A DNA stretch of 39,696 bases, taken from Chitinivibrionia bacterium (GTDB taxonomy: Bacteria > Fibrobacterota > Chitinivibrionia > Chitinivibrionales > Chitinivibrionaceae). The position numbers and the translations under genes were made by a program. The stretch spans positions 1-39,696 of the forward strand of contig WRAZ01000017.1 of NCBI GenBank assembly GCA_009779925.1, given 5' to 3'. Position 1 is the stretch's first letter. The number at the start of each line of letters is the position of its first letter. The notes below the pieces were generated by a model. That model was not told the DNA's origin and ran no database searches. It worked only from the letters and a program-made list of their open reading frames with translations. Positions 8,195 through 13,113 of this stretch are shown piece after piece.

Positions 8195-8663
8195 CATAAT
8201 CGCCGTCGGAAAAATTAAAGAAAATTATCTGAAAGACGCAATTGGCGAATACCTAAAACGACTTTCCGCGTTTGCCAATATGCAAATAATCGAAATTCCC
8301 GACGCGCAATGCCCCGAAAATCTAAGCGAAGCACAAAAAAACATAGTTCTGCAAAAAGAAGGCGAGAAAATTTTAGCACAAATCTCACCGAAATCTTTCG
8401 TTTACGCTTTGGCGATTGACGGAAAAAAATTGTCGTCCGAAAAATTCAGCGAAAACATACAAAACAATATGACAAACGGAGTATCGCATATAACATTTAT
8501 TATAGGCGGCTCGCTTGGACTAAACAGCGAAATTTTACAAAAAAGCGATTTTCGCCTGTCGTTTTCGGATATGACTTTTCCGCATCAACTTATGCGAGTG
8601 ATTTTGCTGGAACAAGTTTATCGCAGTTTCAAAATAATTGCAGGAGAACCGTATCACAAATAG
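8184..8663 (+). CDS. rlmH: 23S rRNA (pseudouridine-1915 N3)-methyltransferase RlmH
   Basis: The 159-aa length is typical for RlmH, a SPOUT methyltransferase that acts on assembled 70S ribosomes. Diagnostic segments are MKISIIAVGKIKENYLKDAI at the start, FVYALAIDGKKLSSEKF in the centre, the SAM-binding knot THITFIIGGSLGLN-like strand (here SHITFIIGGSLGLN), and the C-terminus FPHQLMRVILLEQVYRSFKI, AGEPYHK. The overlap with the NFACT-R gene ties two ribosome-linked functions into one transcript. Two hairpins follow at 8667-8694 and 8732-8760. Confidence 0.95.
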   Translation: MKISIIAVGKIKENYLKDAIGEYLKRLSAFANMQIIEIPDAQCPENLSEAQKNIVLQKEGEKILAQISPKSFVYALAIDGKKLSSEKFSENIQNNMTNGVSHITFIIGGSLGLNSEILQKSDFRLSFSDMTFPHQLMRVILLEQVYRSFKIIAGEPYHK

Positions 8664-8666
8664 TAT

Positions 8667-8694
8667 TTTATCCACTTCAAATAAAGTGGATAAA
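8667..8694. repeat. Hairpin after rlmH without T run
   Basis: An 11-bp perfect stem (8667-8677 with 8684-8694) and a 6-base loop sit directly after the rlmH stop. It overlaps a copy of the AAATAGTATTTT motif at 8656-8669 whose TAG is the rlmH stop codon. It may be an RNA-stabilising hairpin upstream of the real terminator. Confidence 0.5.
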
Positions 8695-8731
8695 TATGAG
8701 CAATACAGATTTATCTTACAAAAAAACCATC

Positions 8732-8760
8732 GGCGCAAAACAATCTTTGCGCCTTTTTTT
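8732..8760 (+). terminator. Rho-independent terminator of the NFACT-R/rlmH operon
   Basis: GGCGCAAA (8732-8739) pairs with TTTGCGCC (8746-8753) and is followed by seven or more T. The non-coding stretch 8761-8881 after it shows no gene. Confidence 0.85.
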
Positions 8761-8881
8761 ACACATTTCCGCAATTGCCCCACAATTTTCACCAAAAACA
8801 AAATAATCTCCCACGCCACCCTTGCCACAATGTATTTTCACTCAGAGAAAAGCAATGCAAACAAAAAACGAGGAGAAAATA

Positions 8882-8959
8882 ATGCAATTCGCACAAAAAT
8901 GTCAAATTCCCTTGACAACAGCGAGAGGTCGAAATTACTCTCTCTCTCTCTCTCTCTAA
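8882..8959 (+). CDS. 25-aa leader ORF containing the CT microsatellite
   Basis: An ATG at 8882 is preceded by GAGGAG at about 7 bases. It encodes a 25-residue peptide starting MQFAQKCQIPLTTARGRN and ending SLSLSL, because codons 19-25 fall in the CT tract; TAA at 8957-8959 ends it. The start signal is as good as that of many true genes in the window. With one more CT unit the frame would stay open to 9101, past the ATG of the surface protein at 9085. With one fewer it would stop at 9012. This is a candidate phase-variable leader peptide; translation is not proven. Confidence 0.45.
   Translation: MQFAQKCQIPLTTARGRNYSLSLSL
8938..8957 (+). repeat. (CT)10 dinucleotide microsatellite
   Basis: Ten uninterrupted CT units lie 128 bp upstream of the large surface-protein start and inside the leader ORF. 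They are followed by TCTAAT (8955-8960), a possible -10, and preceded by TTGACA (8912-8917), a possible -35, with a spacer currently far too long at 37 bp. Tracts of this type mutate by slipped-strand mispairing. Confidence 0.9.
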
Positions 8960-8991
8960 TACTCACCCATTTTTATCATTTTTCAAAAAAT

Positions 8992-9012
8992 CTATATACC
9001 TATGGTATATAG
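8992..9012 (+). repeat. Hairpin in the 5' leader of the surface-protein gene
   Basis: A 9-bp perfect stem (CTATATACC with GGTATATAG) and a 3-base loop. It lies between the CT tract and the ribosome binding site at 9071-9077. The rest of 9013-9084 shows only the AAGGAGG site. Confidence 0.6.
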
Positions 9013-9084
9013 GCGTTGGGCGTGTTATGTGGGCAAAACACAGAATTCAATTTTTTCGATATAAATTAAAAAGGAGGTTGCTTT

Positions 9085-12000
9085 ATGAAAAGCAAAACTA
9101 AAACATTCCTATTGGCAATCGCAATGGTATTTGCGGTAATCACAAGTTCAACAGCAGCGAGCATTGAACTAATCAACGATGAAAATGCTTGGCATACTTA
9201 TTTTTGGGGAAATGCACAAGCAGAAGTTATCAACAACAGCCCTTTTACGGGAGCATTAATTCCAAACGGCGGTGGAGGCGGATTTTGGCAAGACGGAATT
9301 TATGATTGGACTAATGCTACTTCTATTCGTATAACCTACACAAGCAGCCACAATTTTTTAGCTATATTAGGTTGTGAGCAATTCATTTATTACGTTCAAT
9401 TACCTGCGGGGACAAACAGGACAGAAGATATTTCATTGCTGGGCGTAAATGCCCGTTTTACACGTAGCGATAGAGTTAATTGGGTGCCGCAACAAATAAC
9501 AATGAACCAATCTATTTTATCTCAAATAAACGGGGCTGTTAATATAGAGTCTGTCGCGTGGGGAGCAACGACAAATATTACCATCACCTCCATTTTAGTG
9601 GCAGGATTACAAGTCGCGCCCTCGCACAGCATTACAGTAACGGCGGGCGCGGGCGGAACGATTTCGCCGAGCGGAGATGTTCTTGTCAGAGAGGGAAGAA
9701 ATCAAACATTTACCATTACTCCCGAAAACGGATATATAATACAAGATGTTAAGGTAAACGGTGTAAGCAGAGGAAAAATAAACAGTTATACTTTCCAAAA
9801 CACAAGGGGCGACTCTACTATTGAGGCGAGTTTTAGGGCGCTTGCAGATTTTGGGCTGACCGAACTAATCAACGACGAATTTGTTTGGCATATAAACAGA
9901 TGGGGCAACGAAAACAATGTGTTTGCGAGCAAATTATCAAACAACCCATTAGAGGGCTCAATAAGTGTGAGAACTCCTCACGACGGGGTGAGCAGCGCAA
10001 ATTTCGACCTTTCTCTTGTGGATTTTGATTGGAGCAATGTGGTAAATATCAATATGACTTATACAAGCGACAGGGAATTTTTTCTTAATTTATGGGACAG
10101 CGAAAATGAAAGAGGATATATGCGTCTTATTCCGAGAGGCACAAACGCAAGCATAAACTTTGATTTGTCGGGCTTTACCTTTTGGGACGCAAGTCAAATG
10201 CGAGATGTGCCTGCTCACACAGTGTGGGATTTATCAAAAATAACACACCTTGGCATAAACACGCTTTGGGGTGCAACATCGACATCTTTTCAAATAACGT
10301 CTCTTTCGGTGGCGGGGTTGGAAGTCATACAAAACACTCACAAAATTACAGCGACGGCAGGAGCGGGCGGAACGATTTCGCCGAGCGGAGAAGTGGTCGT
10401 CAGAAACGGAGCGAACAGAACATTTACCTTTACTCCCGACAGGCAATATGTAATAGAAGACGTTAAAATAAACGGCGTAAGCAGAGGAAGAATAAACAGT
10501 TATACGTTCCAAAACATAACGGGCGACTCAACTATTGAAGTCCGTTTTGAAATGCCCGATTACACCGAACTAATCAGCGACGAATTTGTTTGGCACGCGC
10601 AAACTTGGGGCGCTAATACAACTGCGACAATAACATCAAACAATCCGTTGGCGGGCTCAATAAGTAGCAACAACGAAACGGGCGGCGGAAATATTTCTCT
10701 AAATGTTCGCGACTTTGATTTGACGGATGTAAGTAGAATTGATATGACTTACACAAGCGACAGGGCGTTCCTGCTAATATTATGGGACGACGAAAACAGA
10801 AGAGATTTTTATCGGGTTATACCCGCAGGTACAAACGCAAATATAAGTTTTGATTTATCGGGTTTTATCCGTAGGACAGGAACTCAAGACCTGCCTGCTC
10901 ACACAGTTTGGGATTTGTCTAAAATAACAGATGTTGTTATACAGCCACTTTGGGTTAGCGCAGTAGATTTTCAAATAACCTCGCTTGCCGTAGCAGGTTT
11001 GAAAACTCAAGCAAGCGAAAATGTCGAAGTTATTTGGGATACAAAAACGGACTTTGTTTACAACGGAAGAGTGCAAGCGCCGACAGCAACGGCAATTACG
11101 GCAGACGGAATTCCGTTGCAACTTACGATTTTGGGCGGCGCAACAAACGCAAACAGTTCGCCATACGTCGCAACGGCAATTCTTGCGACAACAAACAGCA
11201 ATTTCAACTTTAATTTGACGGGCGCAACAAAACAATTCACAATCGCAAAGGCACAAATCAGCCCAATCTTAAACATTCAAAGCGTTGAAGTCGGAAATGC
11301 GCTTGCTCCGAGCGTAATCGGAAATCTTGACAATGGCGCAATAACTTACCTTTTTGCAACAAGTGAAAACGGAGAATTTTCTGCAATTGCTCCGACTGCT
11401 GTAGGAACACACTTTGCAAAAGCAATGATAGCGGAAACAGAAAACCGTCTTGGCGCGCAAACACCCGTTGTCTCGTTTGCCATACTTTCCGAAACAGCGG
11501 CAGAAACGGCAAATGTTGTAGTAGTTTGGGAAGATATAAACGACGACTTTATATTTAACGGCTCAATGCAAGCGCCGTCTGCTTCGGCAACATTGTTCGG
11601 ACTTCCCGTTCCATTGGAAATTATCGGCGGAATTAACGCGGGAGAACACAGAGCAATCGCCCGTTTGGCAACTCCGAATAATCAGATAATTTTGACCAAC
11701 TCCGAAAAACCATTTACGATAGAGCCGAGAACGCTTCGCGAAAACGCAATATCGCCAATCAGCCATTTTTCATTTACGGGCAGGCAAATTACTCCGAATG
11801 TCGAAGTTAAATACGGCGAAGAAAGTTTAACGGAAAACGTAGATTTCAAGGTTTTTTACGGAGCAAATATTTCGGGAATGGGAAGCGTAGAAATCACGGG
11901 TATCGGAAACTACACGGGAATTTTAAGCCGCACATTTGCCATTGCTTCAAGCGGAACACCTATTGTCAGCGTTGTTTGGGGCGAAACGCAATTTACGTTC

Positions 12001-13113
12001 AACGGCGAAGAACAATATCCCACTGCAACGGCAATGTGGAACGATATAGAAATCGAACTTGAAATTATCGGCAAACAAACAAACGCGGGAAGCCACGTGG
12101 CAGTTGCTCAACTTAAAAATCCCGCGCTTGGCATAATTTTGGTGAATAATGTTCGTCCGTTTACCATTAGCCCTAAGAAATTAACGGTAAGTTGGTCGCA
12201 ACCAAGAACGTTTGTTTATAACAAAATGGTGCAAGTCCCAATTCCGAGCGTGGAAGAGAAAAGCGTTATGTTGCGTGTTGTCGGCGGTCAGTCCGAAGTC
12301 GGAAATTATACGGGAGTTCTTGCGCCGTTTGCTCAGATAATTTCGGCAAATGCGAATAATTTCACGCTTGACGAAAGCACCGTCAGCATAGATTATTCAA
12401 TTACACCGAGAACGCTTTTGGTTTCATTGACCGCACCCGCTAACGACACAATTTTGTTGAACGAAAGAGATTTCGCTGAAATAGAAGACATTATATCTCA
12501 TTTGAGCGGACTTATCAGATTTATCGGCTTTGCAACTAACACCGAAACGCAAGAAAGCGACAATGAAGACGTTTTGACGGGAGCGCCGTCAATTTCGTTG
12601 AGCCCGATACCGACAACACTTTCAGCAGAAGCGCGCGAACAACGTTCAAACGAAACAGAAAGATTGTATTCGGTCAACATAAACACTTCGGCAATGAGCG
12701 CAAAAAACTACACCCCGCAAGGTCAAACAGGTTTAGTCGTAAGATTATCACAAGGTTCCACATCAATCAGAAGAACAGAATCCCGCGATAACAGACACGG
12801 CATTGTGTTGGAAAATGCCATTGTTTCGGATGTGGCAAGAATTTCGGTAATCACTCCCGAACCCGCAACAATAAACTTGCGAATTTTAGATAATTTGGGG
12901 AATGTCGTATTCACGGAAACCGCTACCCATCCGTACGGGCGGGTTTTAAACCCGCCCCTACATTCGTCGGCAATCGTCTGGAATTTGACCAACACCAACG
13001 GACGTTTCGTCGCCAACGGCACGTATTTGATTGTTGTAGAGACGCAATGCCTTGCGTCTCCTTCCGGCGGCAGAAGATTCACCTATTCCGCAAGAATTGG
13101 CGTTAACAGATAA
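9085..13113 (+). CDS. Large surface protein: three jelly-roll-like repeats, InlB-type and MBG-like domains, FlgD-like tail
   Basis: The 1342-aa protein has a signal peptide at residues 1-25. Three homologous units of about 700 bp begin at 9166, 9862 and 10567 (each opens ELI(N/S)DE and has MTYTSDR, IPAGTN, WDLSKIT). The first two end in a divergent InlB B-repeat (ITVTAGAGGTISPSG, then VKVNGVSRG). From about 11020 come several MBG-like Ig repeats (FVYNGRVQAPTATA, FIFNGSMQAPSASA, FTFNGEEQYPTATA). The C-terminus (about 12770-13113) is the FlgD-like or type IX-like tail shared with the 1186-3186 protein, but interrupted by two in-frame palindromic repeats. The ribosome binding site AAGGAGG is strong. 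The likely role is surface display or adhesion, possibly carbohydrate binding by the N-terminal units; no catalytic motif is seen. Confidence 0.85.
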   Translation: MKSKTKTFLLAIAMVFAVITSSTAASIELINDENAWHTYFWGNAQAEVINNSPFTGALIPNGGGGGFWQDGIYDWTNATSIRITYTSSHNFLAILGCEQFIYYVQLPAGTNRTEDISLLGVNARFTRSDRVNWVPQQITMNQSILSQINGAVNIESVAWGATTNITITSILVAGLQVAPSHSITVTAGAGGTISPSGDVLVREGRNQTFTITPENGYIIQDVKVNGVSRGKINSYTFQNTRGDSTIEASFRALADFGLTELINDEFVWHINRWGNENNVFASKLSNNPLEGSISVRTPHDGVSSANFDLSLVDFDWSNVVNINMTYTSDREFFLNLWDSENERGYMRLIPRGTNASINFDLSGFTFWDASQMRDVPAHTVWDLSKITHLGINTLWGATSTSFQITSLSVAGLEVIQNTHKITATAGAGGTISPSGEVVVRNGANRTFTFTPDRQYVIEDVKINGVSRGRINSYTFQNITGDSTIEVRFEMPDYTELISDEFVWHAQTWGANTTATITSNNPLAGSISSNNETGGGNISLNVRDFDLTDVSRIDMTYTSDRAFLLILWDDENRRDFYRVIPAGTNANISFDLSGFIRRTGTQDLPAHTVWDLSKITDVVIQPLWVSAVDFQITSLAVAGLKTQASENVEVIWDTKTDFVYNGRVQAPTATAITADGIPLQLTILGGATNANSSPYVATAILATTNSNFNFNLTGATKQFTIAKAQISPILNIQSVEVGNALAPSVIGNLDNGAITYLFATSENGEFSAIAPTAVGTHFAKAMIAETENRLGAQTPVVSFAILSETAAETANVVVVWEDINDDFIFNGSMQAPSASATLFGLPVPLEIIGGINAGEHRAIARLATPNNQIILTNSEKPFTIEPRTLRENAISPISHFSFTGRQITPNVEVKYGEESLTENVDFKVFYGANISGMGSVEITGIGNYTGILSRTFAIASSGTPIVSVVWGETQFTFNGEEQYPTATAMWNDIEIELEIIGKQTNAGSHVAVAQLKNPALGIILVNNVRPFTISPKKLTVSWSQPRTFVYNKMVQVPIPSVEEKSVMLRVVGGQSEVGNYTGVLAPFAQIISANANNFTLDESTVSIDYSITPRTLLVSLTAPANDTILLNERDFAEIEDIISHLSGLIRFIGFATNTETQESDNEDVLTGAPSISLSPIPTTLSAEAREQRSNETERLYSVNINTSAMSAKNYTPQGQTGLVVRLSQGSTSIRRTESRDNRHGIVLENAIVSDVARISVITPEPATINLRILDNLGNVVFTETATHPYGRVLNPPLHSSAIVWNLTNTNGRFVANGTYLIVVETQCLASPSGGRRFTYSARIGVNR
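12933..12961. repeat. Palindromic repeat, GGGCGGGTTT family, inside coding sequence
   Basis: GTA-C-GGGCGGGTTT arms pair with AAACCCGCCC-C-TAC. The same unit occurs at 27962-27990 in non-coding DNA. Here it is read as PYGRVLNPPL, where the homologous protein at 1186-3186 has a much shorter VGANHHLP loop. Confidence 0.85.
13036..13060. repeat. Palindromic repeat, GAGACG(C/T)AA family, inside coding sequence
   Basis: GAGACGCAA (13039-13047) pairs with TTGCGTCTC (13052-13060). It is a sister of the element at 19336-19356. It is translated as ETQCLAS where the homologous tail at 1186 reads EATGIS. Confidence 0.8.

What the first reader, a model, noticed from the sequence alone, without database searches (positions are those of the whole stretch)
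8882..9101. CT microsatellite inside a leader ORF that could switch coupling to the surface-protein gene
Seen: a 25-codon ORF with a strong GAGGAG site holds (CT)10 and stops right after it. Adding one CT unit (or losing two) opens the frame through the ribosome binding site and start of the 1342-aa surface protein, ending at 9101. Losing one unit stops it at 9012, upstream of the start. So three repeat lengths give three different relations between leader translation and the downstream start. Known: slipped-strand variation in such tracts controls surface proteins in many bacteria. Inference: a translational contingency switch, possibly with a promoter-spacing effect as well.
Basis: partly seen in the sequence, partly recalled or inferred. 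Interest (0 to 1): 0.75.

Follow-up and report, generated by a model that had tools for sequence, protein, structure and literature searches.

The report
Repeat-length switch before surface genes
A short stuttering CT repeat in a small leader gene, whose length decides whether ribosomes are carried on to the start of a surface-protein gene, is not a one-off: the same module sits before at least eight genes of this probable termite-gut bacterium, which looks like a large, so far unreported repertoire of random on/off switches.

Summary
It belongs to a dispersed module. Nine copies lie in this 2.5 Mb genome (order of a Chitinispirillia MAG) and hold every (CT)>=7 tract found, with 7-23 units. 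In all 8 complete copies, and one in a relative, one frame is open from the tract through the SD of the downstream gene, usually ending as a 4-nt ATGA/GTGA overlap; chance about 1e-10 (shuffles) to 5e-6 (real upstream regions) for seven leaders. The other frames stop right behind the tract or mid-leader. Assembled lengths mostly give the stop right behind the tract; one copy (C11) is coupled. A pentanucleotide family repeats the architecture; the genome carries some 30 long, mostly frame-shifting repeats. Best reading: phase-variable translational coupling of secreted proteins. A real complication: the conserved TTGACA before the tract is the -35 of the genome's housekeeping promoter type (N18 spacer), its -10 formed by the first CT units, so an internal promoter may start inside the tract. 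Length variation within a population was not testable.

The parts
8826..8838 (+). P1, promoter-like motif CACAATGTATTTT (variant of the genome's CAAATA(G/T)TATTTT)
   Evidence: aligned in the other copies; motif enriched upstream of ordinary genes
8870..8875 (+). SD of the leader ORF (GAGGAG)
   Evidence: sequence; conserved in C11, C1, C45
8882..8959 (+). leader ORF, 25 codons, frame A stop TAA 8957-8959
   Evidence: start 56 nt before the tract also in C11, C1, C45 and G036:C70
8912..8917 (+). TTGACA, -35 of an internal promoter-like element (P2)
   Evidence: in all 9 copies and G036; TTGACA-N18-TATTTT 26 vs 0 control
8936..8941 (+). TACTCT, -10-like hexamer of P2, its last four bases from the tract
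   Evidence: N18 spacing as in housekeeping promoters
8938..8957 (+). (CT)10 microsatellite
   Evidence: 7-23 units in the other copies
8992..9012 (+). AU-rich hairpin CTATATACC-TAT-GGTATATAG; frame B stop TAG 9010-9012 lies in its 3' arm
   Evidence: hairpins with other stem sequences at this place in 6 more copies
9071..9077 (+). SD of the surface-protein gene (AAGGAGG)
   Evidence: sequence
9099..9101 (+). stop of the coupling frame (frame C), 17 nt into the gene
9085..13113 (+). 1342-aa secreted surface protein with signal peptide and divergent InlB B-repeat domain
   Evidence: C-terminal part shared by several dozen genes of the genome

Best explanation
A phase-variable translational-coupling switch. 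Shown: promoter-like motif P1, SD and start codon, leader ORF, (CT)n tract, three-frame stop layout, AU-rich hairpin, SD and start of a secreted protein; the layout recurs at several loci. Inferred: slipped-strand mispairing changes n; n mod 3 picks the leader's exit frame. Frame A ends right behind the tract and leaves the hairpin and SD untranslated (low or off). Frame B ends mid-leader. Frame C carries ribosomes through the hairpin to a stop overlapping the gene's start, where they reinitiate (high or on). The leader peptide itself need not matter, since its tail is not conserved. Most copies read as A in the assembly, so most of these genes would be off in the sampled population, with C11 on. 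An internal promoter at the tract edge may add a leader-independent transcript.
For: Nine module copies with n = 10, 15, 7, 23, 23, 15, 23, 12, 13. Coupling frame open in 8/8 complete own copies and in G036:C149; five own copies end as ATGA and the relative as GTGA (+4), C17 and C5 at +17, C1 at +89. Null: product 1.1e-10 over seven leaders with dinucleotide shuffles, about 5e-6 with real intergenic upstream regions. The (ACACA)n family, without the TTGACA element, has the same immediate stop and coupling frame (+4, +4, +8). CAAATA(G/T)TATTTT, enriched upstream of ordinary genes, lies upstream of the leader start in most copies, with weaker variants in C17, C11 and C1. Assembled n gives frame A in 7 of 8 G000 copies with a clear start, plus G036:C149. 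In G036:C70 a related tract is directly inside a signal peptide. Nearly all downstream genes start with a signal peptide or lipobox. A surface gene at C1:269844 has a similar promoter and the same SD without the module. Trinucleotide tracts of >=7 units are absent while 2-, 5-, 7- and 8-mers abound.
Against: No reads, strains or expression data: variation within a population and any effect on expression are unproven. The downstream SD (AAGGAGG) is strong, so frame A may not silence the gene. CTTGACA-N18-TAnnnT is a housekeeping promoter type here and is conserved in the module; its transcripts would lack the leader start. MutS and MutL are present, which lowers slippage of dinucleotides. Three copies have exactly 23 units and one contig ends 6 nt behind such a tract, so these counts may be an assembly ceiling; without them the frame-A bias is weak. 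C5 lacks a clear leader start and C1 overshoots the start by 89 nt. C46 (ACAGC) has no coupling frame.
Confidence: 0.6

Rival explanations
1. Transcriptional switch: the promoter that matters is the internal one (TTGACA 8912-8917, N18, TACTCT 8936-8941). The tract supplies half of its -10 and the whole start region, so n changes the start site, abortive or slippery initiation, or the 5' end of the mRNA. The leader ORF would then not be in the main transcript.
For: TTGACA-N18-TATTTT occurs 26 times against 0 for the reversed control and precedes tRNA genes, tuf, gapA and pyk. The CT modules carry TTGACA with the -10-like hexamer at N18 (TACTCT in 8 of 9, TTCTCT in C1), even where the leader frame through it differs. 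A second tract family has an intact promoter of this type 0-60 nt upstream of the repeat.
Against: It does not explain the open coupling frame, the leader SD and ATG, or the (ACACA)n family, which lacks the element. n does not alter the -35/-10 spacing. In G036:C70 the element lies downstream of the start codon of the secreted protein. The -10 deviates at two positions from TATTTT.
Confidence: 0.22
2. Plain decay of ON/OFF genes: the tract once lay in the signal peptide of the secreted protein itself, as in G036:C70, and the present leader ORF is a remnant, with the gene now using its own start.
For: G036:C70 has the tract inside a signal peptide, and (LS)n suits a signal-peptide core.
Against: In the complete copies the downstream gene has its own SD and signal peptide, and the frame between tract and gene stays open although its sequence is not conserved; decay would fill it with stops.
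Confidence: 0.08
3. Neutral microsatellites that hitchhike with a duplicated promoter region; neither frame nor length has an effect.
For: Copies C17, C11, C1 and C45 share up to about 370 bp and clearly arose by duplication.
Against: The same layout with unrelated leaders and with another repeat unit, the coupling frame far above chance, the lack of trinucleotide tracts, and the bias to secreted proteins.
Confidence: 0.08

Closest known systems
Helicobacter pylori oipA (and other outer-membrane protein genes) with CT dinucleotide repeats in the signal-peptide coding region (PMC10564699)
   Same: CT dinucleotide tract near the 5' end, slipped-strand frame switching, surface proteins; the G036:C70 copy is of this form.
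   Different: In H. pylori the tract is inside the gene that is switched. Here it sits in a separate upstream leader ORF and the gene keeps its own SD, start and signal peptide; the frame decides coupling.
Haemophilus influenzae SSR contingency loci, including the hifA/hifB (TA)n promoter repeats (PMC2651432)
   Same: Many loci of one genome carry frame-shifting or promoter SSRs before surface genes.
   Different: Those tracts act inside the ORF or are proposed to act by -35/-10 spacing; here n does not change promoter spacing.
Translational coupling of overlapping genes (conserved coupled pairs, PMC3711429)
   Same: Stop of the upstream ORF overlaps or adjoins the start of the downstream ORF.
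   Different: Known pairs are fixed; here the overlap is reached only at one value of n mod 3.

Membership tests
SSR contingency locus (slipped-strand phase variation) | Long, pure, frame-shifting repeat far above chance | tested here: met
   (CT)10; about 1e-7 expected per genome; nine tracts
SSR contingency locus (slipped-strand phase variation) | Unit number varies between copies of the locus | tested here: met
   7-23 units among paralogous copies; not a test within one locus
SSR contingency locus (slipped-strand phase variation) | Reversible variation at one locus within a population | not testable with these tools
   no reads or conspecific strains held
SSR contingency locus (slipped-strand phase variation) | Unit number changes the reading frame or the promoter of a gene | tested here: met
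   three exit frames with three different stops at each locus
Translational coupling | Upstream ORF ends at or across the downstream start | tested here: met
   in one of three frames; +4 in six leaders, +17 in C17 and C5
Translational coupling | Downstream translation depends on upstream translation | not testable with these tools
   needs a reporter; predicted SD pairing (unpaired 0.04-0.56) is only suggestive
H. pylori-type CT signal-peptide switch | Tract inside the signal peptide of the switched gene | tested here: not met
   the window gene has its own start 127 nt behind the tract; met only in G036:C70

The most novel reading that the evidence does not exclude
A three-position switch class in which a repeat-bearing leader ORF, not the gene, is the contingency element: the same leader module has been copied in front of many unrelated secreted-protein genes, with several different repeat units, so that one bacterium holds dozens of independently flipping surface genes, possibly combining a coupling switch with a promoter built partly from the repeat itself.
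Probability: 0.45. Interest if true: 0.8.

Novelty: new variant of a known kind. Interest (0 to 1): 0.7.

Why it matters
[quoted passage not shown] A probable gut symbiont of the Fibrobacterota with some 30 long repeat tracts, most of those read here placed before or inside secreted-protein genes, would extend it to an insect-gut community and suggest strong selection for surface variation there, for instance by phages or competition for fibre. The portable leader module, which needs no change to the gene it controls, would be a new way to make any gene phase-variable, and is easy to test with a reporter.

Tried and rejected
Leader peptide as the conserved function: rejected, since C3a and C26 read the conserved DNA in another frame and the tails are unrelated. 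Intrinsic terminator between tract and gene as the general switch: only C5 shows a terminator-like hairpin with a T run on the coding strand, by eye; the window hairpin scores as one only on the minus strand. GAGAG/CUCUC hairpin across the element: absent in C3b, C26 and C5. Sigma-54-like sequences before the CT tracts of G034 and G013: not pursued, contexts look coding or unclear. Canonical TTGACA-N16-18-TATAAT: only 4 versus 1 control, which first made me doubt TTGACA as a promoter; the N18-TATTTT form settled that it is one in this genome. Orthologous locus in the same genus: G001 lacks the surface gene beside rlmH. A whole-collection scan found the element only in the one relative.

Full report
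Observation. The tract, the 25-codon ORF and the three stop positions are exactly as described. (CT)n encodes Leu-Ser in every frame, so the ORF always passes the tract and only the exit frame depends on n.

A dispersed module. A search of the window's own genome (G000, 2.5 Mb, 88 contigs; the window is contig C17) found that 8880-8957 is repeated: C17, C11, C1, C45, C21, C3 (twice), C26, C5. All (CT)>=7 tracts of the genome lie in these copies, with 10, 15, 7, 23, 23, 15, 23, 12 and 13 units. Each is preceded by TTGACA-N15-AA(T/G)T(A/T). Outside, only one relative of the order (G036) has it; its record is a Chitinispirillia MAG, and I take the habitat, termite gut, from the isolate name only. 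That relative has a second copy with 19 instead of 20 nt between TTGACA and the tract. The same-genus genome G001 has none and lacks a surface gene directly beside rlmH.

Anatomy of a copy. A promoter-like motif, then a start codon, mostly with an SD, 56-71 nt before the tract (C5 unclear), the element, the tract, TAG/TAA directly behind it in one frame (not in C5), an AU-rich hairpin whose stem sequence differs between copies (7 of 8), then an SD and the start of a gene whose product has a signal peptide or lipobox. C3b is cut by its contig end. Downstream products include InlB-type repeats, fibronectin III, leucine-rich repeats, a weak Por_Secre_tail match below its cut-off, and a polysaccharide deacetylase domain. 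The last 125 or so residues of the window protein recur in several dozen genes of this genome.

The coupling frame. For all eight complete G000 copies and the G036:C149 copy, one of the three exit frames is open up to or across the downstream start: five G000 copies end as ATGA and G036:C149 as GTGA (+4), C17 and C5 end at +17, C1 at +89. Dinucleotide shuffles of the leaders give 0.004-0.12 per leader for an end within -3..+20, and a product of 1.1e-10 for seven leaders, with C17 standing for the C17/C11/C1 group. A harsher control with real intergenic upstream regions gives 0.11-0.28 per leader; my product of these is about 5e-6. That control is inflated by crude gene calls.

Which state is assembled. 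With the best-supported starts, C17, C1, C45, C21, C3a, C3b and C26 exit in the frame that stops right behind the tract; C11 exits in the coupling frame; G036:C149 is also in the first class. Eight of nine has binomial P about 1e-3 (about 3e-3 after allowing for the choice of frame).

Other repeat units. In 2.21 Mb of the genome there are some 30 long repeats, mostly with units of 1, 2, 4, 5, 7 and 8 bases, a few of 6, 9 or 10, and no trinucleotide tract of 7 or more units. Three (ACACA)n copies (C2, C28, C4) repeat the layout with coupling ends at +4, +4 and +8, and C2 and C28 also read as the immediate-stop frame; a fourth, (ACAGC)n at C46, has no coupling frame. Other tracts, such as (AC)n at C39, C12 and C23 and (GT)n at C26, are directly behind a start codon, the classical form.

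Promoters. CAAATA(G/T)TATTTT is strongly enriched upstream of ordinary genes (TAGTATT 11-fold) and often lies 29-66 nt before their starts. A motif of this kind lies upstream of the leader start in the aligned copies; the window form, CACAATGTATTTT at 8826-8838, is a weaker match, and C1 is poor. Separately, TTGACA-N18-TATTTT occurs 26 times against 0 in the reversed control, before tRNA genes, tuf, gapA and pyk (gene names from the visible sequence). The module carries TTGACA-N18-TACTCT (TTCTCT in C1), with CTCT taken from the tract. I therefore regard an internal promoter as likely present, and it explains why TTGACA is kept whatever the leader frame. It does not explain the coupling frame, and in G036:C70 it lies behind the start codon of the secreted protein. 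A surface gene at C1:269844 has a similar promoter region and the same SD with no module between them.

Judgement. Structure and comparison show a conserved, portable leader whose exit frame depends on n. That n varies at one locus, and that coupling sets expression, is inferred. MutS and MutL are present, which argues for modest slippage rates. Full-text searches found CT repeats in the H. pylori oipA signal peptide and SSR loci of H. influenzae, but no repeat-bearing leader ORF that switches coupling and no report of phase variation in Fibrobacteres. The library holds open-licence papers only, so absence there is weak evidence.

Noticed in passing
G000 contigs C2:34179, C28:5029, C4:83688, C46:15 (loci L127, L177, L212, L195): Second leader family with (ACACA)n or (ACAGC)n tracts and the same layout before secreted-protein genes.
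   Followed up: partly
G000 C15:35659, C18:38214, C23:13473, C11:18019, C49:7791, C22 end (loci L165, L221, L172, L155, L198, L225): Third group: TTGACA/TTGACT-N18-TATTTT promoter followed at 0-60 nt by 5-, 7- or 8-mer repeats, then mostly a secreted-protein gene.
   Followed up: partly
G000 C20:98, C25:122, C11:55036, C10:44987, C3:78042, C26:31603: Poly-G tracts of 10-24 bases, possibly further contingency loci.
   Followed up: no
G000 C23:29750, C12:47205, C39:1966, C26:26648: (AC)n or (GT)n tracts directly behind start codons of long ORFs, the classical on/off form; C23 reads as off in the assembly.
   Followed up: partly
window 8656-8760: A CAAATAGTATTTT promoter motif overlaps the rlmH stop codon and is followed about 60 nt on by a strong terminator (8732-8760): looks like a small RNA unit; the terminator region recurs at several places of the genome.
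   Followed up: no
L097 and L099 (G034:C90, G013:C15): Long CT tracts directly behind TGGCAC-N5-TTGC sequences that resemble sigma-54 promoters.
   Followed up: no
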